Source of the DNA: Ryuthela nishihirai | Taxonomy: Eukaryota > Arthropoda > Arachnida > Araneae > Heptathelidae | Direction of reading: 5' to 3' | NCBI GenBank assembly: GCA_038380435.1 | Contig: JAWZYU010000027.1 | Coordinates: 1,237,156 to 1,301,155, forward strand | DNA length: 64,000 nt | Part shown: piece by piece, positions 17,946 to 45,957 of the stretch | How the letters are laid out: each line of letters begins with the position of its first letter | Numbering within the stretch: position 1 is the stretch's first letter | The notes under the pieces: model-generated | Seen by the model: only the letters and a program-made list of their open reading frames with translations | What the model was told of the DNA's origin: nothing | The model's database searches: none | Position numbers and translations under genes: made by a program

Positions 17946-19532
17946 TTACGTAGTAATTTCATCCAACCCTGGGGATTTATGAAGTTTAAGTTTAGAAATA
18001 GCCAAACTAACTTCAGATTGTGTTATAGGGTAAACATTAAAGCCAACAATGCATCTATCATCATTGCAAACAATTGGAGTAGAATTAACCACATTGTTTA
18101 GAACATCACTGAAATGCTCAGCCCACCTAGCCATGACAGAATCCTCACCTTCTATAACCTTACCTTGGTTATCCTTCAATCCCTGTATACCTGTTCGTTT
18201 TCTACCACACAAAACATTAACTATCTGGTACAGCTCTCTGCTGTTTTGCTGTCTAACTGCTTCCTCAGCTTTGTCAGCTAGGCCATCAAGCCAAAGATTC
18301 TTATCAGTAGCTAACTGATCCTTTACACGTTTATTAAGTTCTTTGTAATGCTTTCTATTAGGACTAGTAGGGTACTGATTAAGGACATTCCTGCAGTTCG
18401 TTCTTTCTGAAATAAGCTCAAGTGCCTTATCACTTAAATAATTCTGCCTCCTCTGCTCCTTTTTCTCCAAAAGAGTACTGTTAGTTTCCAAAAAAGCCTG
18501 CTTAAAATGGCCCCATTCTTCCTCAACTTCAGTATTAAGCAAACCATGACTGTCATAATGACTAAGTAACCTATCATGGTAAGCTTTAGCTATAACTGGG
18601 TGTTTCAGAGCTTCAGTATTAAAGGTACATTTTTTAACTCTAGCACAACACTTTTTAAGTTTAAGTTGCAAGACACTTTTAACAAGGTAATGGTCAGATC
18701 CAATTTCAGCTCCCCTATATGCCCTGGTATTTCTAACAGAACTAGCCCATTTGCTCTTAATTAATATATAATCAATCATATTCCTATGCAGCCCATCAGG
18801 TGAAACCCATGTGTATTTATGTATGTCGCGGTGTTTGTAATATGTGTTAGTTATTCTGAAATCATTGAGTTTACTTACCTGTAGGAGACGTTGCCCATTG
18901 CCATTGCAGCTACCAATATCAAAAGGGCCTATTACTCCTCCCCAAAGGTCAGAGTCGGTACCAACTTTGGCATTGAAGTCACCAAGAACAAGGGTAATAT
19001 CTCCTTTCTTGACAGAATTCAAAATATCCTGAAGTTGACCGTAAAACCTATCCTTCTCAACCTCATCAGAATCCTCAGTGGGGGCATAACAGCAGATAAC
19101 ATTCAAGTCTTTAATGCTTGTCTGAAATTTTGCTGTTAGAAACCTTTCATTAATGCACTCATATCCTAGAAGAGCATCACTAGCATGTCTGCTGAGCAGC
19201 AGACCCACGCCTTGGTGATGCTTTCCATCCTCCCTCCCTGTAAAGAGAAATTTAGAGTTATTTTTAAGTATCTCACCTTTACCTGTCCATTTGGTCTCTT
19301 GCAAGCCTAGAATATCTAGGTTATAGCGCTGGAATTCCTGCATGAGGACATCAAGAGAATAATCTCTATGTAATGTCCTCACGTTCCATGTTCCTGCAGA
19401 GAGAAAATGATTAGTAGGATTTTTAAAGAAATTAGGTTTATTGAGATTGGTAGGGCCAACAATATCAAACAGCCCCCTGATCGCAGGCATGGGACAAAGA
19501 CCTGTTCCTCCTCCGCTAAAGGCTGAAGTCAC
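17946..19532 (-). pseudogene. LINE copy 2 endonuclease and linker, open to a nonsense codon
   Basis: This 528-codon open segment covers the whole apurinic/apyrimidinic-type endonuclease that nicks target DNA during reverse transcription. Visible are the N-terminal TWNVRTL motif, the catalytic QETKW glutamate, the GDFNAKVG block and the C-terminal SDHYLV histidine. A linker leads towards the RT. The open frame's first codon at 19,532 is GTG. The first ATG in frame is near 19,490 (MPAIRGLFDIVG), and the upstream sequence behaves as leader. The frame ends at a single nonsense codon just before the RT fingers and continues in the same frame to about 17,457. Confidence 0.85.
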
Positions 19533-20140
19533 CGATGCTGGTAGGAACTTCAGGCACCACTTTTCAAGTGGACTTTTTCAAGAGCCACATGGCCTGCCTG
19601 AGACACATTACTCCAGTTTAGGGTTGACGATACCCAACTAGCTAAGTAAGGTTCAGGTACCTGCGATGGCCTCTGATTAGGATTATCCACCAGCTGATAT
19701 AAGGTATCCCATGCCTCTGTTCACTTAGAGCTGTCAACCCAGAAGCAAACAGAAAACACAGCGGCAGACTCCCCCTCAACAGAGGCCCACCAGTGCAGCA
19801 AGTCCAGGATCAATAATCAAGCTCAAATCCATAAACAAGTCCAGTCTAGTAGGTATAAATGGTCAGCACCAGGACCCTGTGAAGTTGACCACTCCTCAGC
19901 AGGGTTGAAAAAAAGAAAAAAGTGGCCATAGATGACCAGATCAGTAGGCCATACTGAACTATCAGCCCTCTCCTTCCGTTCCCTTCCAAAAGAGAATATC
20001 TCTTTTGAAAGGTACTAACGGCCTGCACCACGAGAAGGCGGGGTCGGACATTAGGTGCTAGAACTGGTCGGTTCTGTGCATCATCACTAGGGATTGGTAC
20101 ACAGCTCTCCTTCCAGTTTACGCCTAGCTACCTTTTACAG

Positions 20141-29790: not shown

Positions 29791-30816
29791 TATAATGGTG
29801 TTTTCCATTCAGTTTTGAAATTCAGCTGCTTAGTTGTATTTTCCAGTAATTCTTGTGAGTTTTGTTTGGCATACCCATATTTTTTCAAATGCATGTTCTA
29901 CTTTTGTTGGAACAATAAGTGTCGTTTTTTCTTGTTTAACTGTATTTTACAGAAGGTGCTATAATTTGTTGTGTAATTGTACTTTCTAATTAATGGTGTG
30001 ATTTGGATTTAAGTGTATTTTCACCAGAGCCTCATTAGCCATCAAGAGTTGATAATTTCTCGATTTTAGCTCTGTTGGAGAGAACATAAGAGTAAAAGAA
30101 ATAAGGTCGTAGTTTCGACACTTTAAGTAAGAAGGAGAAATGATCAGCCCTTGATGTTGGCCGCCTCTCACTGCGTGGAAGTTGAGGTTGGATTTTGAGA
30201 TGCCCCACCTCCCACCACTCTATGCTCGTCTGTTGGTTTTTGCGACGCATAGAACCTGAAAGACAGAGAGAAGAGTCCGTTAGAACATCGGAAGGACGTT
30301 TTGCTTATTCGTATAAGGATAATATATTGCTAAACTTACAAAACATAAACTTGTAACTAGGCAAAAAGTAGGGCGAAATATAAAGCTTGGATATAACTTG
30401 TTATTAAATGCAATGTGCATGAAATCCTTATCCAATAAAGCAATAAAAAATAGAAAAAATAGAGACAAAACGAAAGTTAGGAAAAACACTAACAATGGGT
30501 TCTGTCGTAAAGTCTTAGACACCCCTTCGACAATTTTTCTTATTTCTGGAGTTCCAATGCAAAAGATGGAATTATCACTGCTGCCCTTAGCACTGCGAAA
30601 GGAGTGAAGAAAAGAAAAAAAAAGTGCGAAAAGACTTTTTTAAAGACCAGATGGTCTTTAAAAAACTTTTTGAACTTGTTCAGCTCTTTCCTCAGCCTCA
30701 ATATAATATCCTCTTTACAATATTCTCTTATTCAATTTAAATACAATTTTTACCAATGATTTTATGCCTTCCAGCCAAATACGTTAATCATCTCTGCCTA
30801 TTGACATTCATAATAC
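29791..30816. other. No gene seen; left flank of the LTR element
   Basis: The sequence is AT-rich with short open frames and no motifs. The last four bases (ATAC, 30,813-30,816) are the target duplication of the LTR retrotransposon. Confidence 0.45.
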
Positions 30817-31381
30817 TGTTGCGGATCACAAAAATGGATAGCCACTGAGCGTGAGTATTAAAAGCTATATTTCAAAACCAAATTCAATACAAGGTAAATT
30901 GTTACAAAGGAAATGATGAAAAAAGGACAAAGGATGAAGTATCTTATTAACAAATCAACTATTAACATGCACAAGTCATCAATCTTCCTGCGTAGAGCAC
31001 ACAATATCAGCTCTGTGTATTTTACTAAATACTACCTTTTACTTGATTTACCAGGTCACCCGAAGATCTTCACTCGTAAACCAATTCTCGTCCTGTGCTA
31101 ATAACTGTTCACACACTAGCCGAACAAAAAGACAGTCCGTGTAGACATTCGAAGTTAGCCATAAAAGTTCCCACTTTTATACTTCCGTGTATACACATCA
31201 AGTTACTTCTTGATACTTACGCGCACTGTCTCAGAACAGCTCACCGTCCATTTTCGAACTCTCCGACCGTTACAACACAACAACCGTTACAATACTCCAC
31301 TCTTCTTCTCCAAATTCTCCCAAAGTTCTTATTCGTTGGCTGAAACTTTGCTTTCGGTTGCCAGATTCTTCTGTCGTAACA
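30817..31381 (-). repeat. LTR (3' LTR of the minus-strand element)
   Basis: This 565-bp repeat differs from the partner LTR mainly by an extra stretch near 30,915-30,930 and by a missing ACACA-type 5-bp unit near 31,198. The last 46 or so codons of the internal open frame run into it (stop near 31,241). Confidence 0.92.
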
Positions 31382-34120
31382 CTGCCCCCTTCCTAGGTCT
31401 TGTTCGTCCCGAACAATTCTGGATTCCAAAGCTTCTTCAGTTCTTCGATGAAACATGGCCAAACGATCCACGTGAACCACCTTGCACTTTGTAGCTGGAC
31501 ATCGACGAATGCGATATACCACGTCTGTGTCAAAATGAAAGCGAATCTCATTATGACGTAGATTTCTTTTCTGACTGAAGCCTCGTCCACAAACATAATA
31601 CGTGTAAGGCCTATAGCCCTTGTGAACACGTTTATGTCTCTGCAGGGAGAAGAATCGACTAAGAGTTTTCGTGCAAAACCTGAAAAAAGTTTTCTTCTTT
31701 GTCGAAAGTTTTCTTCTTTGGATTTTTACTTCTATCAAGAGTAACAAGGAATGAAAGTCATTAGTGACATAAAATCTAGGGAGAAGTTTCATCCTCCAGT
31801 CTGACCTTTTTGTCAGTTGACTTTCCCTTAATTCAGAACTGTCGTGATGAACCTTCAGCCATATTTCACCTGATTCCATTTGATCCCCAAGGTGCTTCAC
31901 AAATATAATATCAGCTCCATAATTCTTTTTAGCTCTTCGGTCCATCTCCTCCTTCCATACTCTTGCTAGAATTGCAGCTTCTAATCCGACAACTTTACCT
32001 GTTTCTCCTGTATAAGTGAAATCAGTGATGTGTCGGGCTGCTAGCAATATTTTTTCTGTTTTACCTTCACATAGCCAGCTTGCAACATCTTCAGATACTC
32101 CTTGTTCTATTAACATGTTACGAAACTTGTTCAAAGCATTGCCGTTATGCAGAACCTTACGGACACGTGATGCTTCATCTACCCTATTATCCACAATGTT
32201 CACAAAACGCAGAAGTTCTCCTAACTCTTCGACGAGCTCTTGCAGTTCCAAGGATCCGTTACCAAGGAAACACTGAACAGCTTCCATCACTTCCAGAGAG
32301 TTGTCAACAGAGTTTTCAAGAGGTGAATCCATGTTGCTGATAACAGCTGAACAACTCAAACTCTTCATTCCACGAGCTTGTGATGCTGCAACCACTTTCT
32401 TAACTAAATCAACAGCAACATTTTCTGTACTGATGAGATCAATAGCTCCTTTTCCGAATTCAACATCATAAACCAAAGCACACACTCCTTCAGCCAGCTT
32501 TTTGGACACAATTGAGCATATCATTAGAGGAACGCTATCTATGGTAGCCATCAGATCCTTGCAGCGGTAAATCTCCTTATCTGTTGGCATCAGCTCCTCT
32601 GTCTGTCCTACGATGCAGCATCCGACGTCTTCCATCATCTGCTCGATTTTATCTTTAGTGCAGTCGACTGTGAAGCCAGGGATGGATTCCAATTTGTACA
32701 GAGTATCTCCCGTCAATTGGAGAGCACGACCGGAGATCATAGGGACCTTGAGACCTAAAGCAGCAAGTGCAGGAGCCAAGACAAGACTCACTTTGTCGCC
32801 GACACCTCCTGTACCGTATTTATCTACCATCCGATGGCGCCACTCGGGTCTCCAGCAAAACACATGACCCGAGGAGGTCATAGTTGCTGTTTCTTCGGAA
32901 TTCAGTTTCTTGGAGCTCTCATTGTAATTAGCCAGGGAAACATCAGTCATGATTGCCAAATTGTTCATTCTGGAGATCAGCGACGAGTTTTGTAACATGA
33001 TATTGTCCACTTTAGAGCTCTTGTAATCGTGATAAAACTTTTCTATATCCTTATAATCTAAATGGTTATAATGTCCAAATCTGCGCATTGACTGTTCAGA
33101 AAAGAAATTCAGCATGGTTTCGTTGAGATTGTCTGAGGGCTTTACTTCTCTCTGATCGTAACTCTGAGGCTTAGTTTCATCCAGAAAGTTAGTCTTTGAA
33201 GTACCGTCTCTGCCTGAAGCTCTTTTACTAGCATCACCTGTTATGCTTCTAAGCCATTCTTCGGAATTCCTCTTCTTTAAATCCCCACTTTCTATAAACG
33301 ATTCAAGTGTGGCTATATGCTTCGGAAAAATCTCTCCGACTTCCCCGGTAACGACGAAGGGCACTTTGTATCTATGATGAATGGACGCCTCTTCTTTACT
33401 CGGACCACTCTGCGAAACGTAAACTCTGTTTCGTTCCCCCTCATTACCACTCGTTACTCTGCCTTTGCGATAATTGTCCATGACACATTTTGCTGACGGC
33501 GAGGAATAGAATACCTTTCGTGTGGATCTCTCTTCAGATCGTGCCAGACTTGTATACCTAGGTATTTTGAAGTGCAAAGCGTACTGTATAGTCTCACAGC
33601 TCTCTGATCTGTGTGATTGTTCTTCACAGTTCCTAGACATGTCACCAGCGACATAGACACTCTGCCATGCATCACCAGTAGTTGCGTGGTCAAAGGCATT
33701 ATCTGCGCTATCTCTACGATTCTTGATTTCCAGTAGCAGATCCACATTTTTATATGCGTTGCCTTTCTCTTTTTCTTTTCCATGTTTACAATCTAACTTA
33801 ACACTATCAAGATCATCTTTTTCACTGACAAATTCAACATTTAAACTATTGCATTGTCTATTGAGTTCGGTTTTATGATCCTTGAAGTGATCAATAAACT
33901 TACCAACTTGAGAAGCCACTTCAGCTCTCATCTCAGTATTTTGTGCGGCCAGGTCACCTATTTTGTTAGCCATATCGGCTTTCAAGTCATTATTTTGACT
34001 TTTAATGTCATTCATCTGTGTAGCCATATCGGCTTTCATATCAGTCATCTGCGTAGCCGTATCGACTTTCAAGCTATTTATCAACTTTACTAATTCATCC
34101 ATACTTCTAGTTAACGGCAT
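31241..34120 (-). CDS. Chimeric 959-aa protein: Gag-like coiled coil, thymidine phosphorylase, zinc-finger relic, Pol tail
   Basis: It begins MPLTRSMDELVKLINSLK only 11 bp beyond the primer site. Residues 1-95 or so form a heptad-rich coiled coil like some Gag N-termini. Residues 96-400 are unrecognised and hydrophilic. Residues 405-757 or so match thymidine phosphorylase, which reversibly splits thymidine to thymine and deoxyribose-1-phosphate: DKYGTGGVGDKVSLVLAPAL, GLKVPMISGR, KLESIPGF, GCCIVGQTEELMP and SIVSKKLAEG. The family's N-terminal helical part, about 80 residues, is missing. The SGRGLGHTGGTLDK-type signature reads SGRALQLTGDTLYK, so the active-site His is Leu. The RDVTAT arginine is Lys. 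Residues 824-860 are a worn C2H2 finger (HKRVHKGYRPYTYYVCGRGF). Residues 870-913 resemble a gypsy integrase end (KVVHVDRLAMF). The frame is uninterrupted and intronless. Catalysis is doubtful. Confidence 0.85.
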   Translation of the reverse strand: MPLTRSMDELVKLINSLKVDTATQMTDMKADMATQMNDIKSQNNDLKADMANKIGDLAAQNTEMRAEVASQVGKFIDHFKDHKTELNRQCNSLNVEFVSEKDDLDSVKLDCKHGKEKEKGNAYKNVDLLLEIKNRRDSADNAFDHATTGDAWQSVYVAGDMSRNCEEQSHRSESCETIQYALHFKIPRYTSLARSEERSTRKVFYSSPSAKCVMDNYRKGRVTSGNEGERNRVYVSQSGPSKEEASIHHRYKVPFVVTGEVGEIFPKHIATLESFIESGDLKKRNSEEWLRSITGDASKRASGRDGTSKTNFLDETKPQSYDQREVKPSDNLNETMLNFFSEQSMRRFGHYNHLDYKDIEKFYHDYKSSKVDNIMLQNSSLISRMNNLAIMTDVSLANYNESSKKLNSEETATMTSSGHVFCWRPEWRHRMVDKYGTGGVGDKVSLVLAPALAALGLKVPMISGRALQLTGDTLYKLESIPGFTVDCTKDKIEQMMEDVGCCIVGQTEELMPTDKEIYRCKDLMATIDSVPLMICSIVSKKLAEGVCALVYDVEFGKGAIDLISTENVAVDLVKKVVAASQARGMKSLSCSAVISNMDSPLENSVDNSLEVMEAVQCFLGNGSLELQELVEELGELLRFVNIVDNRVDEASRVRKVLHNGNALNKFRNMLIEQGVSEDVASWLCEGKTEKILLAARHITDFTYTGETGKVVGLEAAILARVWKEEMDRRAKKNYGADIIFVKHLGDQMESGEIWLKVHHDSSELRESQLTKRSDWRMKLLPRFYVTNDFHSLLLLIEVKIQRRKLSTKKKTFFRFCTKTLSRFFSLQRHKRVHKGYRPYTYYVCGRGFSQKRNLRHNEIRFHFDTDVVYRIRRCPATKCKVVHVDRLAMFHRRTEEALESRIVRDEQDLGRGQCYDRRIWQPKAKFQPTNKNFGRIWRRRVEYCNGCCVVTVGEFENGR
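31382..31394 (-). other. Polypurine tract
   Basis: AGGAAGGGGGCAG on the minus strand directly abuts the 3' LTR. This is the normal position and composition for second-strand priming. Confidence 0.8.
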
Positions 34121-34130
34121 TCAATAAATT

Positions 34131-34148
34131 ATCCCACTTCTGACACCA
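34131..34148 (-). other. Primer-binding site, tRNA-Leu type
   Basis: On the minus strand it reads TGGTGTCAGAAGTGGGAT, 2 bp inside the 5' LTR. It is complementary to the CCA-bearing 3' end of leucine tRNAs of the type ending CACTTCTGACACCA. The tRNA identity rests on my knowledge of tRNA 3' ends. Confidence 0.75.
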
Positions 34149-34150
34149 AA

Positions 34151-34705
34151 TGTTGCGGATCACAAAAATGGATAGCCACTGAGCGTGAGTATTAAAAGCT
34201 ATATTTCAAAACCAAATTCAATACAAGGTAAATTGTTACAAAGGAAATATGGATGAAGTATCTTATTAACAAATCAACTATTAACATGCACAAGTCATCA
34301 ATCTTCCTGCGTAGAGCACACAATATCAGCTCTGTGTATTTTACTAAATACTACCTTTTACTTGATTTACCAGGTCACCCGAAGATCTTCACTCGTAAAC
34401 CAATTCTCGTCCTGTGCTAATAACTGTTCACACACTAGCCGAACAAAAAGACAGTCCGTGTAGACATTCGAAGTTAGCCATAAAAGTTCCCACTTTTATA
34501 CTTCCGTGTATACACAACACATCAAGTTACTTCTTGATACTTACGCGCACTGTCTCAGAACAGCTCACCGTCCATTTTCGAACTCTCCGACCGTTACAAC
34601 ACAACAACCGTTACAATACTCCACTCTTCTTCTCCAAATTCTCCCAAAGTTCTTATTCGTTGGCTGAAACTTTGCTTTCGGTTGCCAGATTCTTCTGTCG
34701 TAACA
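34151..34705 (-). repeat. LTR (5' LTR of the minus-strand element)
   Basis: This 555-bp repeat is near-identical to 30,817-31,381. Transcription on the minus strand would begin here and pass into the primer site and the open frame. Confidence 0.92.
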
Positions 34706-34709
34706 ATAC

Positions 34710-37820: not shown

Positions 37821-37874
37821 CCTGTGTGAAGACGTCAAGTGTTTTTGTCTCCAGATACTCGAACTAGTGCAACC

Positions 37875-38414
37875 ATGCAAAACATCTGTATGGTTCTAGA
37901 TCTCGACGGTTTCCATGTAAATGGTCGTTTCTTAGTGCGCGAACTTGGATATGCAACTCTGAATGGGAAATGTGGTGTCTACCGTTTCAATCTTCGGCAA
38001 CACCAACCTTTGTCAGTAAAAGACAGAAGGACAGTCAGCTACGTATCTAAATATGTGATAGGTCTACCCTTTCGTCCTCTGCTTCGTGAAAAGGTGTGGT
38101 CATTACATCACGTTCCTAACATCGTGAAATATGCTTACAAACTTGCACGTACTGAAGAAGCTACTGTGGTGGGTTACAAAGGAGGTACTGTGGAAAGAAA
38201 TCTCTTGGAACAATTAAATCTGCCCAGTGTTAATCTCGAACTTTACGGCTGCCCCAAATATTGTGATCTCCCAAAAGTTTCCGAGTTCGAGTGCGGATAT
38301 CACACCGGAGAGGACGTCCACTGCTCTTTAGCCGAAACAGCTGCTTTCTTCGGATGGATCGATCGTCGTCGAGAACATGTCCCAACAAACACTTGCTTAT
38401 CAGATCGTTCCTGA
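37875..38414 (+). CDS. RNase H-fold/exonuclease-like protein (tentative), 179 aa
   Basis: I start at the ATG at 37,875 (context GCAACCATG), because the longer frame opens with GTG at 37,839. The protein begins MQNICMVLDLDGFHVNGRF. A D-x-D next to a hydrophobic strand, a central GYKGGTVERNLLEQL and a C-terminal HCSLAETAAFFGWI fall in the order of the three acidic motifs of DEDD-type exonucleases, with several residues changed. Cysteines and histidines (YGCPKYCDLPK, CGYHTGEDVHC) could bind metal. The fold is a guess from motif order. It could equally be a nucleic-acid-binding relative without catalysis. It lies 54 bp after the proline-rich gene and 69 bp before the PC4-like gene. Confidence 0.5.
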   Translation: MQNICMVLDLDGFHVNGRFLVRELGYATLNGKCGVYRFNLRQHQPLSVKDRRTVSYVSKYVIGLPFRPLLREKVWSLHHVPNIVKYAYKLARTEEATVVGYKGGTVERNLLEQLNLPSVNLELYGCPKYCDLPKVSEFECGYHTGEDVHCSLAETAAFFGWIDRRREHVPTNTCLSDRS

Positions 38415-38444
38415 TTGGTCGTCCCAGGTGGTGCGGCTCTCTAG

Positions 38445-38451
38445 TTAAATA
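38445..38451 (+). promoter_or_regulatory. TATA-like element before the PC4-like gene
   Basis: TTAAATA lies 33 bp upstream of the ATG at 38,484, with a GTCATTG initiator-like word about 25 bp downstream of it. It suggests a separate start for this gene. Confidence 0.4.
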
Positions 38452-38483
38452 GGGAGCGAGTGCTGTGTGCGTCATTGTTCACG

Positions 38484-39278
38484 ATGCAGCCTAGCAATCC
38501 AGATGCGTGGTGTCTCGGTGAAGATGTTTACGTTGTACCTACACTGTTCAAAAATAAGTTTTCTGTGCACGTACGCCGCTACAAGAAATATGAAAATTGT
38601 GAACTCATCTACCCTACACTTGCAGGGGTTAGCCTCTCCATACCTGAATGGGAGGCTTTGTGTGCCACGGTCCCCCACATAGAGGATCAAGTGAAAATTG
38701 GCCCCGATCAACAGACATGGTACGTGACGCATGGTTTACGTGTCTACATGTATCGAACTGTGGATGGTGAACGTTGTGTCGAATTCATCAAAGAATCAGC
38801 AGACCAAAGAACTCTACAGTTCCGTGTTGTGAGACGTTGTATAACACTGAATGCTTCGCAGTGGTTCTCGCTGGCTATTCACTTAGACGAAGTGATGCGC
38901 ATTGTGCATGGCGTGTGCGGGACCCCCAAAGATCACCAACTCCGTACGGCTATTATGGAACATTCACAATTAATTCGACCTTTCCTACTGGGTCCTGTTT
39001 TCGACGATCCCGATTGTGTTTACCCGCTGCTGGTGAATATTTTTCAGCAAGAACTTATGCGTGTGATACCGTTAGATGGACTGCAACCCGAAGAAAAAAT
39101 ACCAACTATCGTAGGGTGGTCTGGTGACTTGGACATTAATGCCTTAGCAGAGGTATTTGTGGATACTGCCTGGAAACGAGGTCTGTTGAATTTTGTAGAT
39201 TCTGGTTTTGTTTGCAATCTAAAATATAACGCTATTGTCGACGAGGCAAAAAATGAAATGTATAAATTAAATAAATAA
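38484..39278 (+). CDS. Protein with two PC4-like (p15) ssDNA-binding folds, 264 aa
   Basis: I chose the ATG at 38,484 (MQPSNPDAWCLGEDVYVV) over an upstream CTG in the same frame. Residues 22-70 or so (FSVHVRRYKKYENCELIYPT, then LAGVSLSIPEWEALC) follow the PC4 pattern: two strands with basic residues, a P-T-x-x-G-V-S-L-S turn, then a helix with E-W. Residues 85-145 or so (GLRVYMYRTVDGERCVEF, then RRCITLNASQWFSLAI) repeat the pattern. PC4-family proteins bind single-stranded DNA and act in transcription or replication. In a protein-primed replicon such a protein could coat displaced strands. This is a motif-based inference. The C-terminal 110 residues are unassigned. An AATAAA overlaps the stop codon. 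Confidence 0.55.
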   Translation: MQPSNPDAWCLGEDVYVVPTLFKNKFSVHVRRYKKYENCELIYPTLAGVSLSIPEWEALCATVPHIEDQVKIGPDQQTWYVTHGLRVYMYRTVDGERCVEFIKESADQRTLQFRVVRRCITLNASQWFSLAIHLDEVMRIVHGVCGTPKDHQLRTAIMEHSQLIRPFLLGPVFDDPDCVYPLLVNIFQQELMRVIPLDGLQPEEKIPTIVGWSGDLDINALAEVFVDTAWKRGLLNFVDSGFVCNLKYNAIVDEAKNEMYKLNK

Positions 39279-39333
39279 TTGTATCCTTATATAATGTGTC
39301 TGTCTTTTCATTCAATGTCATTTTAGTCTTGGT

Positions 39334-39660
39334 ATGGATAGGAGAAAGAAGGTGTTAGCTAGTGTGGGTAGTGTAATCATGACAGTGTTAACGATAGCAG
39401 TGCTTGTATTAGAAATTGTAGCTCCTAGTAAAAATATTCAGTGTGGAGAGTCAAAAGCCTTAGACGACGAATACAAAATTCGTGTGTGTAACTTAACAGT
39501 TGACATCAGACAGTTTATAGGGGACGTTCCTACAGTGACAGGTGTTACACTTTCGCTACATCAATGGCAAAACCTGGTGGGGTACGACGTCTGGGTGCAG
39601 CAGAAAACAAAACTTTGGAGTCCCATTATTTCGACCCCGAAAGAGGATTCGGTAGTGTAA
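39334..39660 (+). CDS. Membrane-anchored small protein with a third PC4-like segment, 108 aa
   Basis: It begins MDRRKKVLASVGSVIMTVLT, so a basic start and a transmembrane helix at about residues 8-30. It continues YKIRVCNLTVDIRQFIGDVP, then TVTGVTLSLHQWQNLV, which is again the PC4-like strand-turn-helix pattern seen twice in the preceding gene. The last 97 bp overlap the integrase gene in another frame. It could be a duplicated and re-targeted derivative of the upstream gene. A membrane helix on a DNA-binding-type fold is odd, and the fold call is tentative. Confidence 0.5.
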   Translation: MDRRKKVLASVGSVIMTVLTIAVLVLEIVAPSKNIQCGESKALDDEYKIRVCNLTVDIRQFIGDVPTVTGVTLSLHQWQNLVGYDVWVQQKTKLWSPIISTPKEDSVV

Positions 39661-40628
39661 AAAAGTTAGCACAGAATACGGGACTGCCACTCAAACTCGT
39701 CCGTGAATGGTTAGAAAAGCAACCTGCCTACACGCTACATAAACCTGTTCGCAGAAAGTTCCCCCGTAACAAAGTTTACGTCACAGGGTTAGACGAACAA
39801 TGGCAAGCCGATCTCATGGTGGTGAAAAATCTAACTCGCTTCAATGACGGGTATCGCTACATATTAACAGTCATCGATGTGTTCTCGAGGTACGGGTGGG
39901 CGGTTGCCATGAAGGTTAAAACAGGGAAAGAAATGGTATTGGCTTTCAAAAAAATCCTTTCCAAGGGTCGGTCTCCAATGAATTTAAATACGGATCAGGG
40001 TACGGAATTTACCAACAGAGTGTTCCAGAAATTCCTGAAAAAGAAAGGTATTCGGTTCTTTGCCACCTACTCTGACAAAAAAGCAGCTTTGGTGGAGAGA
40101 TGGAATCGTACCCTACGCGAGAGACTGGGGAGATATTATACACGCAATAACACCTACCGCTACCTGGATGTGCTACCGCGCGTTGTACGGGGATACAATG
40201 CCACCGTTCACAGTGCACACGATATGGCTCCCAAGGACGTGACCTTACGCAATGAAGACGTTGTGTGGGTTCGACTCTATCGCAATCCGACCGTAGTAAA
40301 AGAAAAACCAGCATTTAAAGTGGGGGACACGGTTCGACTAGCCAGTGTAAAAGTACCCTTCAAGAAGGCAGGAACGCATTTGTGGACCGAAGAAATATTT
40401 ATAGTCGACAAGGTGTTACAGCGACAACCCCCTGTGTATGTCATACGGGATTCCGAGGGAGAAGTGTTGAAAGGTACATTCTATAAATCGGAACTTCAAA
40501 AAGTGACAGAACCCGAACTTTACACGGTCGAGAAAATAATCGAGCGTAAAGGTCACAAGGCACTGGTCAAATTTCGTGGTTATCCCAAACCTTCCTGGAT
40601 CCCTAAAAAATGGATAGTTTCTACCTGA
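39564..40628 (+). CDS. INT: Polinton integrase (retroviral type) with C-terminal chromodomain
   Basis: This 354-aa integrase joins the element ends to host DNA. The start MAKPGGVRRLGAAENKTLES is followed by the Polinton-type YFDPERGFGSVKKL helical region and AYTLHKPVRRKF. The DDE core is clear: QWQADLMVV (first Asp, about residue 82), LNTDQGTEF (second Asp, about residue 144) and KAALVERWNRTLRERL (Glu, about residue 179). An SH3-like segment (KPAFKVGDTVRLAS) leads to a chromodomain at about residues 315-352 (YTVEKIIERKGHKALVKFRG, then WIPKKWI), which may tether insertion to modified chromatin. The frame is intact. It overlaps the preceding gene by 97 bp and the next by 19 bp. Confidence 0.95.
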   Translation: MAKPGGVRRLGAAENKTLESHYFDPERGFGSVKKLAQNTGLPLKLVREWLEKQPAYTLHKPVRRKFPRNKVYVTGLDEQWQADLMVVKNLTRFNDGYRYILTVIDVFSRYGWAVAMKVKTGKEMVLAFKKILSKGRSPMNLNTDQGTEFTNRVFQKFLKKKGIRFFATYSDKKAALVERWNRTLRERLGRYYTRNNTYRYLDVLPRVVRGYNATVHSAHDMAPKDVTLRNEDVVWVRLYRNPTVVKEKPAFKVGDTVRLASVKVPFKKAGTHLWTEEIFIVDKVLQRQPPVYVIRDSEGEVLKGTFYKSELQKVTEPELYTVEKIIERKGHKALVKFRGYPKPSWIPKKWIVST

Positions 40629-41647
40629 CCCTACCCTCCACGGCTAGTCAGAATATTTACCCAAACAATTCGCAGACTGATTTCACGGTTCGTCTAGCAC
40701 AACCCCTAAGACTGAGTGGAAAATGGAAAGTGGGACTAGCAGAAGTTCACTTACCCGTGAGCTGGTACAATGTGGACGGTTCTAATGACACGTATGAATA
40801 TTACGCTCCCACCGAAGAATACAGGAAAATCAAACTTAAACAGGGTAAAATAACTCGAATGGAACTGTTGTCTCTCCTCACCACCCAACTTCCAAAAGAA
40901 ATAATAGTTTCCTATAACAGCGGTTACTGGGTATTCAAACCGAGTGAGGGATACGGTTTGATGTTTCCTAAAACGAATTTCGGTAAACTTCTGTGTATCG
41001 GGGAGGGTGAAGTTGACAAACCCTTCCACCAACGATTTGCCAGCAAACTTTGCAATACACCAACGTTCGACATAGATGACGAGTGTTATTTCTACGTGAT
41101 CCCTCCAGGTAGTTTCCAAGAACGAAAGGTGCCCCACGGACGATACGAAACTGCCGAATCATTATTCGATGCAATGAATCAGATGTTACCCTACAGGCTG
41201 AGAAAAGCTTACCGTTTCAAGCAACAGGCAGATCACACCGTATTGATGGATACAGACAAGTCGCATTACATTAAATTTCCTCGATCGAACCCCGGATTAG
41301 GAGACATGCTAGGAATTACTAAATTAGATATACCACTGAATAAAGTTCAGGGTGACTATCCCATCGATATGAACAGAGGAATGTATGGTATTTATTTGTA
41401 TTCAGACCTGATTGTGCCTCAGTTGTTAGGTGATACTCACGGCGAACTGTTGCGTGTCGTGAACCCCGCCGTCAGAACCAGTAATAACGAAGCCATTGTT
41501 GCAGTGTATCAGCAACCTGATTACTACCCCCTTGCAAGGAACAGTTTCGAGAGTGTGAGAATCTTCCTTCGTACCGACACCGGAGAACCTCTGCATTTTA
41601 AATTCGGTAAAGTTTTAGTCAAGTTACATTTCCGCCATGAGGGTTAA
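40610..41647 (+). CDS. mCP: Minor capsid (penton-type jelly-roll) protein
   Basis: This 345-aa protein starts MDSFYLTLPSTASQNIYPNN and continues TDFTVRLAQPLRLSGKWKVG, then LAEVHLPVSWYNV. These form the well-conserved N-terminal block of the Polinton protein identified in the literature as the minor (penton) jelly-roll capsid protein. It would sit at the vertices of an icosahedral particle. There are no breaks. The start is fixed by the conserved FYLTLPS motif at residue 4. It overlaps the integrase by 19 bp and the next gene by 11 bp, as in a tightly packed late gene block. Confidence 0.85.
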   Translation: MDSFYLTLPSTASQNIYPNNSQTDFTVRLAQPLRLSGKWKVGLAEVHLPVSWYNVDGSNDTYEYYAPTEEYRKIKLKQGKITRMELLSLLTTQLPKEIIVSYNSGYWVFKPSEGYGLMFPKTNFGKLLCIGEGEVDKPFHQRFASKLCNTPTFDIDDECYFYVIPPGSFQERKVPHGRYETAESLFDAMNQMLPYRLRKAYRFKQQADHTVLMDTDKSHYIKFPRSNPGLGDMLGITKLDIPLNKVQGDYPIDMNRGMYGIYLYSDLIVPQLLGDTHGELLRVVNPAVRTSNNEAIVAVYQQPDYYPLARNSFESVRIFLRTDTGEPLHFKFGKVLVKLHFRHEG

Positions 41648-42026
41648 ATTCGTTCCCCCTTCTGCAGATGCCTACGTGAGCTACTACAAGAGCCAAACGG
41701 GGAAGGGTGTGTTCCGTGGTCCTCGTTATCAGAGAGGCGATGGGCTAGGAAGCATCTTTGCCACTATTGGACGTTTCATCAGCCCTCTCGTACGACCTGC
41801 ACTGTCCACCCTACGTAAGGGTGGGCTACGGTTCGTTTCAGAGATGTCCCAGGGGCAAAATTTCAAATCTGCAGCCAAAGCGGGACTCCGTGAAGCGGGC
41901 GCCGACCTATTACAACGTGCCAGTTCAAAGCTGCAGGGAGGGAAAGGAATAAAACGCCGCCGTCAGCATCCCAAGGTTCATAAAGTGAAGAGACACTGTA
42001 CTGTGCAGGACGTGTTTTCATCATGA
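41637..42026 (+). CDS. Small virion-core-like protein (adenovirus pX/pVI-like), 129 aa
   Basis: The N-terminal half carries a Y-Y-K-S-Q-T-G-K-G-V-F-R-G-P turn and QRGDGLGSIFATIGRFISPL, a glycine-rich then amphipathic/hydrophobic stretch usual in the small capsid-associated protein next to Polinton capsid genes. The C-terminus is highly basic (GIKRRRQHPKVHKVKRH), suited to DNA binding. Position between minor and major capsid genes, and an ATGA overlap with the latter, support a virion role such as core packing or membrane activity. The comparison with adenovirus pX or pVI is by layout, not proven homology. Confidence 0.65.
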   Translation: MRVKFVPPSADAYVSYYKSQTGKGVFRGPRYQRGDGLGSIFATIGRFISPLVRPALSTLRKGGLRFVSEMSQGQNFKSAAKAGLREAGADLLQRASSKLQGGKGIKRRRQHPKVHKVKRHCTVQDVFSS

Positions 42027-43318
42027 GCATTCAGAAAATTCACGCTGATTCTGGCGACTGTGCCAATTCAGAACTGGACCTGTTTCTGATCCCTCCCACA
42101 GTCTCACAATTAGAAAGAGGTTGCTATGTCAATTATTTACCTGTGGCTTCCTTGGAAGGTAATGCTCCACTTGAATTCATCGTGAAAGGAACAGACGATT
42201 ACATTGATCTATCCCGATGTCACCTACGTCTCGTCTTGAAAATTGTAAAATCCGATGGTACAGCACCGTCGGAAGTGATTGCTCCCTGCAATCATTTCTT
42301 CCATGCCCTCTTCAGCCAGGTTGACGTCTTCCTCAATGATCACCTAGTGAGTGCTTCTCACACCCTGTACCCCTACAGGGCATACCTGGAGACTCTATTG
42401 AATTACGGTACCGATGCCACACGAAGCCAGCTCGGCACCTCGCTCTGGTACCTCGACACCCCCGGTAAAATGGAACTGACGAGTCGGGAGAACGAAGGAT
42501 GGCATCAGCGCAAGGGCTACGTCAAACCAACAGGTATCGAACTCATCTCGTGGATCCACGCCGACCTGTTTAATCAAGATCGTTACCTGCTCAATCAAGT
42601 CGACCTGAGACTGCGTTTATTGAGATCCAAACCCGAATTCTGTCTCGTGACAGGTGAAGCAGACCCCTCTTACAAAGTACAGATACACGAAGCTGAATTT
42701 TTCGTGCGTAAAGTCAAACTCACTTCGAGTGTCATCCTCGCACACGCTCGCCTGCTGAGTTCAGAGAGTGCCAAGTACCCTCTGCGAAGAACGGATTTAC
42801 GTATGTTTTCCATCGCTTCGGGACTGACGAGTGTGAACCGTGACAATTTATTTCTAGGACAGCTCCCCGTACGTCTGGTACTGGGTATGGTGGAAAGTAC
42901 CAGCCTGAATGGATCGTACGAAAAAAATCCCTTCAACTTCCAACATTTCGACTTAAACTACATCAGTCTTCACATTGACAGCGATCACCAGTCCTACACA
43001 CCCGACTTTGCGAATGGGCGCTATCTCCGCTGTTACCAAGGATTATTGGAAGCTGTGGATGCCTGGAAATCCGATAGTGGTATTAACTTATCACGAAAAG
43101 CCTATGGAGAAGGTTTTACATTGTTTGGATTCCAATTGACCCCCGAGCAACGTGAATGCAATCAAGTGTTTTCTTTAATAAAGAGTGGGAGTGTGAGAGT
43201 CGAATTAAAGTTTGCCAAGCCGCTACTCGCATCGGTCACTGTGATCCTGTATGCCGAATATCAGAATTTGCTGGAAATCCCATTGGATCGTAAAGTCCTG
43301 TTTGACTACAGCTCATGA
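42023..43318 (+). CDS. MCP: Major capsid protein, double jelly-roll
   Basis: This 431-aa protein begins MSIQKIHADSGDCANSELDL, with LFLIPPTVSQLERGCYVNYL and IDLSRCHLRLVLKIV as the first strands. A FFHALFSQVDVFLNDHLVS block and a PYRAYLETLLNYG helix follow; these are the conserved signature of Polinton/adintovirus major capsid proteins. The C-terminal roll is seen as FTLFGFQLTPEQ, then VRVELKFAKPLLASVTVILY. Such trimers build the shell of a T-lattice particle. The length fits the smaller Polinton capsids. It is intact, with ATGA overlaps on both sides (with the pX-like gene and the protease). Confidence 0.92.
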   Translation: MSIQKIHADSGDCANSELDLFLIPPTVSQLERGCYVNYLPVASLEGNAPLEFIVKGTDDYIDLSRCHLRLVLKIVKSDGTAPSEVIAPCNHFFHALFSQVDVFLNDHLVSASHTLYPYRAYLETLLNYGTDATRSQLGTSLWYLDTPGKMELTSRENEGWHQRKGYVKPTGIELISWIHADLFNQDRYLLNQVDLRLRLLRSKPEFCLVTGEADPSYKVQIHEAEFFVRKVKLTSSVILAHARLLSSESAKYPLRRTDLRMFSIASGLTSVNRDNLFLGQLPVRLVLGMVESTSLNGSYEKNPFNFQHFDLNYISLHIDSDHQSYTPDFANGRYLRCYQGLLEAVDAWKSDSGINLSRKAYGEGFTLFGFQLTPEQRECNQVFSLIKSGSVRVELKFAKPLLASVTVILYAEYQNLLEIPLDRKVLFDYSS

Positions 43319-43761
43319 ATACCTATCAACTAGAATCCATCCTTTCGATGTTACCCACAAGTCTCGGAGTGTTCCCCCGTGACAGACTACCTAGCAGAAT
43401 CAATCAGCCAGAAGCCTTGTTTATCTACAATACCGATCCGTCCTCCATGCCTGGATCACACTGGATAGCAGTTTACAAGAAAGGAATGCACGTGGATCAC
43501 TTTGACCCCCTAGGTACGAGTCCCGATGTCTCAATGCAAGAATACTACAGTCGACTAGGCATACGTCACGTCTTACATCCTTCGATACCTCTGCAGGACC
43601 CCCTGGGAGACACTTGCGGTGCTCACTGTCTGTATTTCCTGTTTAAAAGAGCGTGTGGTTCGACTCTTCCCACAGTACTGCATCGTGATTACACGTGTCG
43701 AGTAGACTTTAACGACTGCATGGTGTTGCGATGGCTCTCCGAACTCCTTCAAATATTATAA
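43315..43761 (+). CDS. PRO: Adenain-like cysteine protease (maturation protease)
   Basis: This 148-aa protease matches the C5/C48-type maturation protease of Polintons. The catalytic His is in PGSHWIAVYKKG, the acidic partner in DHFDPLGT, the Gln in SIPLQDPLGD and the nucleophile Cys in DTCGAHCLYFLF. It would trim capsid and core precursors during particle maturation. Length and motif spacing are typical, and no break is seen. Its end overlaps the ATPase start by 31 bp. Confidence 0.92.
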   Translation: MNTYQLESILSMLPTSLGVFPRDRLPSRINQPEALFIYNTDPSSMPGSHWIAVYKKGMHVDHFDPLGTSPDVSMQEYYSRLGIRHVLHPSIPLQDPLGDTCGAHCLYFLFKRACGSTLPTVLHRDYTCRVDFNDCMVLRWLSELLQIL

Positions 43762-44357
43762 TTGCTGCTCCTTCACAGTGTGGAAAGACGACTTTCACTC
43801 TGAAACTCATCAAAGAAGCAGCTCAAGTATTCGAACCCCCACCCCAACGTGTCGTTTACTGCTACGGTGAGTGGCAGCCTGCCTTTGAACCCTTCAAGAA
43901 AACGGTGGAATTTTATGAAGGACTACCTACGGATCTGGAATTTGATCCCCTCAGACCTACACTTCTGGTACTGGATGACTTGATGGAACAGTCTGTAGCC
44001 AGCGAACGCATATCACAATTGTTTATTCGTGGTGGTCATCATAAAAATATCACGATTGTCCTGATATTACAAAATCTGTTTTTAAAGGGAAGACATTCGA
44101 GGACTATATCGCTCAATGCTCACTACATGTTTTTATTTCGCAACTGTCGGGATGCTTCACAAATAACTCACCTGGCGAGACAAGTATACCCCCATCAATC
44201 TAAACTCCTGACGGATGCTTATAGGTTAGCTACACAAGCAACCTGTGGCTATTTGTGTGTTGACCTTCATCCCAGAACGTTAGATACTGAAAGGCTCCGT
44301 GCAAAGATTCTTCCATCAGAAGAACCCGAAATACTTTACGTTCCAAATGAAAGTTAA
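43731..44357 (+). CDS. ATP: Genome-packaging ATPase (FtsK/HerA, A32-like)
   Basis: This 208-aa ATPase opens MALRTPSNIIIAAPSQCGKT, so the Walker A P-loop (APSQCGKTTF) lies at residues 13-22 or so. Walker B is LLVLDDLM at about residues 80-87, and a sensor-type VLILQNLF follows. This is the minimal Polinton form of the motor that pumps DNA into capsids. The start chosen is the only ATG close before the P-loop. It overlaps the protease by 31 bp and the next gene by 11 bp. Confidence 0.92.
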   Translation: MALRTPSNIIIAAPSQCGKTTFTLKLIKEAAQVFEPPPQRVVYCYGEWQPAFEPFKKTVEFYEGLPTDLEFDPLRPTLLVLDDLMEQSVASERISQLFIRGGHHKNITIVLILQNLFLKGRHSRTISLNAHYMFLFRNCRDASQITHLARQVYPHQSKLLTDAYRLATQATCGYLCVDLHPRTLDTERLRAKILPSEEPEILYVPNES

Positions 44358-44670
44358 ATCTCAAGGCCCGTTCCTTCAGTGCTTGCCAAAGCTAGGGGGA
44401 AAGCAGCGTGCAGCTCTGATGAAGCACATCTCCGACCCCCAGATGTATGCTCTATGTGAAGTGTGTTCCAATTTCTTAAAAGGCAATATACCTGTCTCCC
44501 ATCGAGTATTAAAGAATTTACGCCAGCACAAGACGGTCATAAGGAGTCTAGCATCCAAACGTGCATCTTTACGCCACAAGAAGCATCTCCTGCAGCGTGG
44601 TTCAGGGTTCATTATACCACTATTGACTGCTGCCCTCCCCCTGCTGGTATCGTTATTTAGAAAAAAATGA
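44347..44670 (+). CDS. Small basic protein with C-terminal hydrophobic anchor, 107 aa
   Basis: The ATG at 44,347 lies inside the last codons of the ATPase gene. Features are GKQRAALMKHISDPQM, a Cys pair (ALCEVCSNFLKGNIPVS), a basic helix (RASLRHKKHLLQRGSGF) and a hydrophobic C-terminus (IIPLLTAALPLLVSLF). This layout recurs in small proteins after the ATPase in animal Polintons and has been compared with adenovirus core or membrane-lytic proteins. The function is inferred only. Its stop overlaps the next start (ATGA). Confidence 0.65.
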   Translation: MKVKSQGPFLQCLPKLGGKQRAALMKHISDPQMYALCEVCSNFLKGNIPVSHRVLKNLRQHKTVIRSLASKRASLRHKKHLLQRGSGFIIPLLTAALPLLVSLFRKK

Positions 44671-44951
44671 TTTCGGTGAAAGCAGTGCAGAGGAGAAACA
44701 TAAGAAAAAAAGTGTGTGATTTAGACTCAGAGATGAAGAAAATATTAGAGTCTGGTGATGCTGACGATAAGTCTGAAAAATATCTGACTGCTTTGAAAAA
44801 TTATTTGTTATTCTCAAAACAGCTTGACACTCCACAGGAAGTAAAAGTCAACATTCCCAGAAATCATATAGCTGAAGAGCGCCCCCCAAAAGACATTGCT
44901 GTTCCCATCCGACGTAAGAAAAGAAAATTATCCGAGTGGACGGCGTATTGA
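44667..44951 (+). CDS. Small charged protein, 94 aa, last gene of the plus block
   Basis: It begins MISVKAVQRRNIRKKVCDLD and contains a helical stretch (SEMKKILESGDADDKSEKYL) followed by TALKNYLLF, then a basic C-terminus (IRRKKRKLSEW). Similar short proteins with a K-x-x-x-Y-x-x-x-L-x-x-Y core occur at this position in other Polintons, to my recollection. No function can be assigned. It is immediately followed by a tandem duplication with two polyadenylation signals. Confidence 0.55.
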   Translation: MISVKAVQRRNIRKKVCDLDSEMKKILESGDADDKSEKYLTALKNYLLFSKQLDTPQEVKVNIPRNHIAEERPPKDIAVPIRRKKRKLSEWTAY

Positions 44952-45142
44952 AAATATCTGTAAAAAACTTTCCAAGACTTGTGTGCTTGAAGACTTGTGT
45001 TAAAAAACCATGTATTAAAAATCTGTATCCAATAAAAGAGAAAATATCTGTAAAAAAAAAAAAAAAAAACTTTCCAAGACTTGTGTTCTTGAAGACTTGT
45101 GTTAAAAAACCATGTATTAAAAATCTGTATCCAATAAAAGAA
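44951..45142 (+). terminator. Duplicated 3' end with two AATAAA signals
   Basis: A unit of about 90 bp (AAAATATCTGTAAAAAACTT ... CCAATAAAAGA) is repeated head to tail, the second copy beginning at 45,041 with an A-run expanded to 17. Each copy ends in AATAAA, so the plus-strand block has twin polyadenylation signals. Confidence 0.7.
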
Positions 45143-45238
45143 AGTAAAACTGATAATTTGCCTTTTGCCATTTTTATGTCTCTTCCCATTCAATGTTTTC
45201 ACACTGATAGTTCATTTTGACATCCGGAAGTGATCTGC

Positions 45239-45454
45239 ATGACTGGGCGCGGTTGTACGAGTGCTGCTACACTCGGGAGTACAGCAGAGGACGTTAGTGT
45301 CGATGGGCGGGGAAATGAGAATGCTGCTGCAGCAGCGAGACTTGGAGGGGAGCAGCGCATTGTGCAGATCACTGATAAGACTTACGGAGCACCTGAAAAA
45401 CAAAGTTACCTCGTGCTTTCTCCCACCATAGTGTCTTCCAGTTCTGAGAAATAA
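45239..45454 (+). CDS. Possible small open frame, unclassified
   Basis: A 71-codon frame from ATG at 45,239 (MTGRGCTSAATLGSTAEDVS) is followed by an ATAAAG-type sequence. There is no motif, and an overlapping open frame exists on the other strand. It may not be a gene. Confidence 0.2.
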   Translation: MTGRGCTSAATLGSTAEDVSVDGRGNENAAAAARLGGEQRIVQITDKTYGAPEKQSYLVLSPTIVSSSSEK

Positions 45455-45679
45455 AGAGACGGATTTTTTGAAACCTTTTTTATTAAAAAATTTACATGAC
45501 AGATCCACTGTTGCTTTCACATGACATAACCACTGTTGGTTTCACATATCCAATGCTGGACAGTAACATATTGTAGGTTTCAAAAATACAAGCTTCAAAA
45601 ACTGCTGACGACGCCGAGTGCAAGGTCATTACGCGTGATAAATTAAGATCCATTAAGGATATTGAAATAAAAGGCGTAC

Positions 45680-45957
45680 AGTGAAATAATAAATAAAGGT
45701 GTAATAAATAAAGATGTAATAAATAAGTTGAAAACTGTACAATGTAATAAAGGTGTAATATGAAATAAATAAGTTGAAAACTGTACAATGAAATAAATAA
45801 AGGTGTAATATAAAATAAATAAAGGTGTAATATGAAATAAGTTGAAAACTGTACAATGAAATAAATAAAGGTGTAATATGAAATAAATAAGTTGAAAACT
45901 GTACAATGAAATAAATAAAGGTGTAATATGAAATAAATAAGTTGAAAACTGTACATT
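45680..45957. repeat. AATAAA-rich minisatellite between the convergent gene blocks
   Basis: Two alternating words, AAATAAATAAAGGTGTAATA and AAATAAGTTGAAAACTGTAC, are repeated about six times up to the last base before the polymerase stop codon at 45,957-45,959. It is dense in AATAAA on the plus strand. Confidence 0.85.

What the first reader, a model, noticed from the sequence alone, without database searches (positions are those of the whole stretch)
30817..34705. LTR retrotransposon that has captured thymidine phosphorylase
The element has LTRs, primer site, polypurine tract and 4-bp duplication, yet its single 959-codon frame has a Gag-like start and a Pol-like end. Between them are some 350 residues of thymidine phosphorylase plus a zinc-finger relic. 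An uninterrupted, intronless chimeric frame bounded by near-identical LTRs implies recent capture of host mRNA by a retroelement. Transduction is known for oncogenic retroviruses and some plant elements. A nucleoside-metabolism enzyme in an animal LTR element would be new to me.
Basis: partly seen in the sequence, partly recalled or inferred. Interest (0 to 1): 0.88.

Follow-up and report, generated by a model that had tools for sequence, protein, structure and literature searches.

The report
Jumping gene carrying captured metabolic enzyme
A spider genome holds a large family of a mobile element in which part of a nucleotide-metabolism enzyme gene sits where the element's own shell and copying genes should be, and the hybrid protein's reading frame has been kept open although the enzyme's active site is worn away.

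Summary
Window 30817-34705 (minus strand) is an LTR retrotransposon with near-identical LTRs, a 4-bp duplication, primer site, polypurine tract and one 959-codon frame holding about 355 residues of thymidine phosphorylase (TYMP). It is no lone oddity: a 39-base TYMP word occurs 2190 times in the host genome. The host is a spider (spidroin domain).

The frame is Gag coiled coil, some 280 residues without known relatives, TYMP, a C2H2 relic and an integrase end. A sister element with the same start carries a capsid-like stretch and CCHC knuckle instead (L062, 1.4 kb read; capsid word 1045 places). TYMP thus replaced capsid and most of pol, as in gag-onc retroviruses or maize Bs1, but in an animal and in a large family.

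'Recent capture' is not supported: sampled insertions are recent (25 of 27 LTR pairs at most 0.64% apart), but TYMP is at best 48% identical to known ones and no parental gene was found. Indels keep the reading frame, residue-level constraint on TYMP is not detectable, and a catalytic arginine is lysine at 28 of 28 loci. Probably a non-autonomous element encoding a pseudoenzyme fusion.

The parts
30813..30816 (.). target-site duplication, left copy (ATAC)
   Evidence: sequence; same 4 bases at 34706-34709; 26 of 27 loci have matching 4-bp duplications
30817..31381 (-). 3' LTR (565 nt)
31382..31394 (-). polypurine tract AGGAAGGGGGCAG
   Evidence: sequence; exact in 21 of 27 loci, one change in 3, not recovered by the script in 3
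31241..34120 (-). single open reading frame, 959 codons, running through the polypurine tract into the 3' LTR
33740..34120 (-). Gag N-terminal coiled coil (residues 1 to about 127), shared with a capsid-bearing relative
   Evidence: 213 nt at 95.8% and 267 nt at 78.9% to L062
32891..33739 (-). orphan segment, residues 128-410, origin unknown
   Evidence: residues 128-404: none of 392 candidates at E<=1 in the large protein database (proteins of about 222-707 aa only); no relative in viral contigs; AlphaFold pLDDT below 50 at all but one position of residues 125-406
31823..32890 (-). captured thymidine phosphorylase, residues 411-766
31541..31699 (-). C2H2 zinc-finger relic, residues 808-860
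   Evidence: E 8.3e-13 to a zinc-finger chain; zf-H2C2_2 E 7.3e-5, below its cut-off
31457..31525 (-). integrase C-terminal remnant (Integrase_p58_C), residues 866-888
34132..34148 (-). primer-binding site TGGTGTCAGAAGTGGGA (complementary to an animal tRNA-Leu 3' end: recalled, not tested)
   Evidence: exact in 13 of 27 loci, one base different in 13, not recovered in 1
34151..34705 (-). 5' LTR (555 nt)
34706..34709 (.). target-site duplication, right copy (ATAC)
   Evidence: sequence

Best explanation
It is a member of a young, high-copy, non-autonomous Ty3/gypsy-type LTR retrotransposon family of a spider, made by transduction: during reverse transcription in a particle the polymerase switched between element RNA and cellular mRNA, so that capsid, nucleocapsid, protease, RT, RNase H and most of integrase were replaced by an orphan segment, about 355 codons of thymidine phosphorylase and a zinc-finger fragment, in frame with the Gag coiled coil (arrangement shown; switching mechanism inferred). 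It keeps its cis signals (LTRs, primer site, polypurine tract: shown) and is most likely copied and inserted by enzymes of capsid-bearing relatives with the same 5' end (relatives shown by 1.4 kb of one copy and by word counts; their RT and integrase not seen; trans-mobilisation inferred). The fusion protein's frame is kept open in replicating lineages (shown by indel lengths and few stops), so a translated product probably matters to the element in cis, for instance by joining the helper's particle through the shared coiled coil (inferred). The enzyme is probably inactive: a catalytic arginine is lysine at all 28 loci read.
For: 27 of 27 loci compared have an LTR pair and 26 of 27 a matching 4-bp duplication. 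2190 TYMP words, 2259 orphan-segment words, 1045 capsid words, 1460 gag-start/primer-site words, reversed controls 0 in each. Of 31 exact gag-start places on contig C1, 12 lie next to a listed exact TYMP word, 10 next to a listed exact capsid word, 0 next to both, 9 next to neither (both lists capped at 100 places). L062: same gag start, then capsid-like stretch (PNMA E 0.0016, below cut-off) and CCHC knuckle above cut-off. One frame of 917-1199 aa at 23 of 28 loci. Distinct indels that are multiples of 3 in 25 young copies: gag 34 of 34, orphan 3 of 3, TYMP 7 of 9, finger-integrase tail 0 of 2, LTR 4 of 31; Fisher p 2.7e-5 for orphan+TYMP against LTR. Stops seen in 2 or more copies 0 against about 5.4 expected, singletons 1 against about 6.3. 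Arg202 (human numbering) is Lys at 28 of 28 loci, His116 kept at 6 of 28. TYMP falls with chelicerates 99/97, and with spiders at a weaker 88/60.
Against: After correction for transition bias there is no sign of purifying selection on TYMP residues (omega 1.41, 95% 0.85-2.48; uncorrected pN/pS 0.74), and no segment's interval lies below 1. Parental gene not found. RT and integrase of the presumed helper were never read. The structure model of the L062 capsid stretch was too poor to use (pLDDT 42) and its only capsid-family match is below cut-off. Copies were sampled towards young ones (best hits, or exact 39-base word on C1). Word counts are not element counts: next to exact gag-start words TYMP and capsid are nearly even (12 and 10). 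Transcription and translation could not be tested.
Confidence: 0.74

Rival explanations
1. Passive cargo: the TYMP segment does nothing; the family grew because its cis signals are good, and frames are open only because the expansion is young.
For: Omega of TYMP not below 1; active site worn; very young LTR pairs; young copies were preferred in sampling.
Against: Copies differ from each other by a few percent while their LTR pairs hardly differ, so most differences arose in replicating lineages; there, indels found in two or more copies are multiples of 3 in 7 of 7 cases in orphan+TYMP and in 0 of 17 in the LTR; almost no stops. The finger-integrase tail, by contrast, is not frame-kept (0 of 2).
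Confidence: 0.3
2. Living enzyme: the element keeps thymidine phosphorylase activity to alter the nucleoside pool for reverse transcription.
For: Fold well predicted (pLDDT mostly 80-98 over the TYMP part; TM-score 0.85 by target length to human enzyme); Ser217 and Lys221 positions kept in the window copy.
Against: Arg202 to Lys at 28 of 28 loci, His116 lost at 22 of 28, Lys115 to Glu at 6 of 28, the TGGT motif changed at 28 of 28 (one further locus, L060, has it), DVK changed to DVE or DDE at 28 of 28; no recognisable N-terminal domain; omega about 1.
Confidence: 0.05
3. Ordinary host TYMP gene flanked by LTRs, or an assembly artefact.
For: None found.
Against: 2190 places; LTR pair at 27 of 27 loci compared and duplications at 26 of 27; frame fused to a Gag coiled coil shared with a capsid-bearing relative.
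Confidence: 0.01
4. Older capture in another species followed by horizontal entry of the finished element into this genome.
For: No parental gene found; at best 48% identity; no chimeric protein among the 15 hits of the whole-frame search.
Against: A capsid-bearing relative with a near-identical 5' end lives in the same genome, and its words are common there; TYMP falls with chelicerates.
Confidence: 0.15

Closest known systems
Bs1 LTR retroelement of maize (passages of the review PMC13317346)
   Same: LTR element that transduced segments of three host genes, from which a chimeric, translated gene arose
   Different: plant and other genes; here an animal, an enzyme segment fused to a Gag coiled coil, in a family with about 2190 TYMP words in one genome
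Replication-defective transducing retroviruses (passages of PMC13297096; gag-onc fusions recalled)
   Same: host coding sequence inside a retroelement at the cost of viral genes, need of a helper; gag-onc fusions (recalled) even share the Gag-host fusion
   Different: here no envelope, a nucleoside-metabolism enzyme rather than a growth gene, and amplification within a genome
LTR-mediated retrocopies of metazoans (Tan et al. 2016, not opened; known here through passages of PMC5408686)
   Same: template switching between LTR element RNA and cellular mRNA, reported for animals
   Different: those are described as retrocopies of genes; this became a large element family
Bdelloid rotifer LTR elements with enzymatic ORF3 (abstract of PMC5408684)
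   Same: animal LTR elements that acquired an enzyme gene
   Different: there gag and pol are kept and the enzyme is an additional ORF; here it replaces them and is fused to Gag

Membership tests
LTR retrotransposon, Ty3/gypsy type | long terminal repeats with TG...CA ends and short target-site duplication | tested here: met
   duplications at 26 of 27 loci; 20 of 27 ATAT
LTR retrotransposon, Ty3/gypsy type | primer-binding site and polypurine tract at the LTR edges | tested here: met
   which tRNA is recalled, not tested
LTR retrotransposon, Ty3/gypsy type | own capsid, protease, RT, RNase H, integrase | tested here: not met
   Pfam finds only an integrase C-terminal remnant; hence a non-autonomous derivative, not a full member
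LTR retrotransposon, Ty3/gypsy type | relative with same termini carrying gag-pol | tested here: inconclusive
   L062: gag start, capsid-like stretch, CCHC knuckle; pol not read
Transducing retroelement (host gene captured) | host coding sequence inside the LTRs, replacing element genes, in frame | tested here: met
Transducing retroelement (host gene captured) | parental gene with introns that the copy lacks | tested here: inconclusive
   parent not found: PF02885 gave only a bacterial trpD-like block; active-motif pattern hit only another element copy; two spider-type N-terminal queries gave nothing better than E 8.46
Thymidine phosphorylase (enzyme) | glycosyl transferase family 3 a/b domain | tested here: met
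   PF00591 104.6 bits against cut-off 27; NCBIfam thymidine phosphorylase models match below their cut-offs
Thymidine phosphorylase (enzyme) | N-terminal helical domain PF02885 | tested here: not met
   not in Pfam scan; profile test of residues 331-414 equalled or beaten by 81 of 2000 shuffles
Thymidine phosphorylase (enzyme) | catalytic His116, Arg202, Ser217, Lys221 (roles recalled; positions by alignment) | tested here: not met
   Arg202 is Lys at 28 of 28 loci, His116 kept at 6 of 28

The most novel reading that the evidence does not exclude
A metabolic enzyme fold has been turned into a structural part of a retroelement: the Gag coiled coil fused to a dead thymidine phosphorylase (a dimer in its enzyme relatives: recalled) takes the place of the capsid domain or co-assembles with the helper's particle, and this substitution gives the element an edge over its own capsid-bearing relatives (2190 against 1045 word places; only 12 against 10 next to exact gag-start words).
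Probability: 0.15. Interest if true: 0.92.

Novelty: new variant of a known kind. Interest (0 to 1): 0.72.

Why it matters
Capture of host mRNA by LTR elements is known. Here a captured enzyme segment rides in an animal element whose TYMP word occurs 2190 times in one genome, keeps its reading frame and has lost its active site. That makes testable whether a host-derived fold can stand in for, or parasitise, a Gag capsid, and how non-autonomous elements with a protein of their own fare against their helpers. It also warns annotators: many spurious 'thymidine phosphorylase-like' genes could be called in such a genome (inference).

Tried and rejected
Hidden TYMP N-terminal domain in residues 330-410: looked plausible by eye; not supported by pairwise shuffles (eight TYMPs) nor by profile (one search was the same script failing). 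The Foldseek match of the model to human TYMP over 438 alignment columns against a 448-residue chain is not taken as evidence for it, because the alignment given to the predictor contained full TYMPs. Residue-level purifying selection on TYMP: uncorrected ratio 0.74 vanished with transition bias. Structure of the L062 capsid stretch: pLDDT 42, not searched further; solved-structure searches with L062 gave only coiled coils and chance matches. Helper RT/integrase: the PF22938 search was asked four times, never answered, and dropped. Other frames of the orphan segment: only frames of 43-112 aa seen, not searched. Papers: ten searches; the two that joined thymidine phosphorylase with LTR retrotransposon, or with retrotransposon and spider, gave one fungal comparative-genomics paper and none; this speaks only for that open-licence library. 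Passages of PMC12440569 and PMC7264820 were read and not used. Host species not identified.
Full report
1. The observation. The element lies on the minus strand of the window at 30817-34705. Its LTRs are 565 and 555 nt, differ by 1 substitution in 550 aligned positions and two gaps, and are bounded by the 4-bp duplication ATAC. A primer site lies two bases inside the 5' LTR and a polypurine tract touches the 3' LTR; that the primer is a tRNA-Leu is recalled. One frame of 959 codons fills the interior and runs into the 3' LTR. Pfam and solved structures give thymidine phosphorylase at residues 411-766 (PF00591 E 8.9e-30; human enzyme E 1.3e-72), C2H2 fingers near 808-860, and an integrase C-terminal remnant at 866-888 that just reaches its cut-off. 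NCBIfam thymidine phosphorylase models also match, below their curated cut-offs.

2. Copy number and age. The host assembly (3.11 Gb, 1680 contigs) holds 2190 places matching a 39-base TYMP word with up to 3 mismatches, 0 for the reversed word, and 2259 for a 39-base word of the orphan segment. The whole-element search scored only 36 of 3772 candidates and is a lower bound. I read 28 loci in full: the window copy and the seven next best hits, and 20 stretches on contig C1 that hold the exact 39-base word. This sample leans to young copies. Of 27 loci whose LTRs were compared (the tandem array L056 left out), 14 pairs have no substitution, 25 differ by at most 0.64%, two are older (2.75% and 3.9%); 26 have matching 4-bp duplications, 20 of 27 being ATAT.

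3. Frame. 23 of 28 loci hold one open frame of 917-1199 aa that begins like the window's; the other 5 are broken. Copies differ from each other by a few percent although their LTR pairs hardly differ, so most differences arose while the lineages were replicating. In 25 young copies, distinct indels that are multiples of three number 34 of 34 in the Gag coiled coil (a repeat-rich stretch), 3 of 3 in the orphan segment, 7 of 9 in TYMP, 0 of 2 in the finger-integrase tail and 4 of 31 in the LTR; among indels found in two or more copies, orphan plus TYMP have 7 of 7 and the LTR 0 of 17 (Fisher p 2.7e-5 for all indels of orphan+TYMP against LTR; with the two older copies added 11 of 17 against 8 of 40, p 0.0019). 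Stops: 0 shared against about 5.4 expected and 1 singleton against about 6.3 (sums over four segments, 26 young copies).

4. Residues. A simple count over 28 loci gave pN/pS 0.74 for TYMP, 0.48 for the orphan segment, 0.62 for the coiled coil and 0.90 for the tail. With the transition bias measured on LTRs (kappa about 4.6), 26 young copies give 1.41 (0.85-2.48) for TYMP, 0.73 (0.43-1.48) for the orphan segment, 0.90 (0.60-1.33) for residues 1-127 and 1.59 (0.75-3.98) for the tail. So the frame is kept but no residue-level constraint is shown. Aligned to human TYMP, the catalytic Arg202 is Lys at 28 of 28 loci, His116 is kept at 6 of 28 (Asn at 18, Tyr at 4), Lys115 is Glu at 6, and the TGGT and DVK motifs are changed at 28 of 28 (which lists 58 rows; the other 30 are shorter stretches, mostly of the same copies, and also show Lys at that arginine); the roles of these residues are recalled. 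One further locus, L060, has TGGT. The TYMP fold itself is predicted with good confidence, lower at two active-site loops, and matches human TYMP.

5. Source. Nearest TYMPs are horseshoe crab and spider enzymes at 42-48% identity (named rows). In a tree of 40 rows the element falls with chelicerates (99/97) and, more weakly, with spiders (88/60), on a branch of 0.98. The host genome holds a Spidroin_N domain (E 4.6e-19; 0 of 14 control genomes, all prokaryotes), so I take it for a spider; the species is unknown. A parental gene was not found: the N-terminal family PF02885 hit only a bacterial trpD-like block, a degenerate pattern for the intact TGGTLDKLE motif hit one place, another element copy, and two spider-type N-terminal queries gave nothing better than E 8.46. 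Introns inside these stretches could hide it; the tool itself warns that an empty answer shows nothing. Residues 128-404 have no relative at E<=1 among 392 candidates of the large protein database (word-based and limited in length), and no chimeric relative appeared with the whole frame (15 proteins, TYMPs and zinc fingers only, from the 7992 candidates scored).

6. The relatives. A 58-base word spanning gag start, primer site and LTR end occurs 1460 times. Of 31 exact places on C1, 12 lie beside a listed exact TYMP word and 19 do not; five of those 19 lie beyond the listed range of the TYMP search. I read 1.4 kb of one of the 19, L062: it shares 213 nt at 95.8% with the element from the start codon, then goes on into a capsid-like stretch (PNMA family E 0.0016, below cut-off) and, in a shifted frame, a CCHC knuckle above cut-off. 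A 41-base word from its capsid stretch occurs 1045 times; 10 of the 31 gag-start places lie beside it, none beside both words, 9 beside neither. So TYMP replaced capsid and what follows, leaving a Gag N-terminus and an integrase end. Word counts suggest that the TYMP form outnumbers the capsid form, but words differ in length and conservation, and beside exact gag-start words the two are nearly even.

7. Reading. The simplest account is transduction by template switching, described for LTR elements in plants and metazoans (passages of PMC5408686; of PMC13317346), followed by trans-mobilisation by the capsid-bearing relatives. What I found no precedent for in the papers seen is the fusion to Gag with loss of capsid and pol in an animal element of such copy number, with an open frame over a worn enzyme. 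Searches that joined thymidine phosphorylase with LTR retrotransposon, or with retrotransposon and spider, gave one fungal paper and none; this covers only the held library.

8. What stays open: whether the protein is made, what it does, where the orphan segment comes from, and whether the host still has the enzyme.

Noticed in passing
window 37830-49748: Gene set that looks like a Polinton/Maverick: integrase-like (39504-40628 +), two capsid-like frames (40607-41647 +, 41984-43318 +), packaging ATPase-like (43713-44357 +), protein-primed DNA polymerase-like frame of 1263 aa (45957-49748 -); named by eye from translations.
   Followed up: no
window 54152-54898 -: Protein-kinase-like open frame of 248 aa near the Polinton-like genes, named by eye.
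   Followed up: no
window 4901-5638 +, 16720-19577 -, 55441-57819 +: LINE-type endonuclease/reverse-transcriptase frames, named by eye.
   Followed up: no
L056 (G000:C1:30085864-30095256): Tandem array of TYMP elements that seem to share LTRs; three TYMP words spaced 3427 bases apart.
   Followed up: partly
L039 (G000:C16:11097933 region): Bacterial-looking block with trpD-, trpC- and ppiD-like frames (by eye) inside the assembly: contamination or transfer.
   Followed up: partly
G000:C30:36429183-36429530: The only Spidroin_N hit lies in an open frame of 8352 aa without stops: a giant single-exon spidroin-like gene.
   Followed up: no
window 33740-34120 and homologous parts of other copies: Gag coiled coil varies in length between copies by multiples of three (36 of 36 distinct indels in 27 copies), part of the spread of frame lengths from 917 to 1199 aa.
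   Followed up: partly
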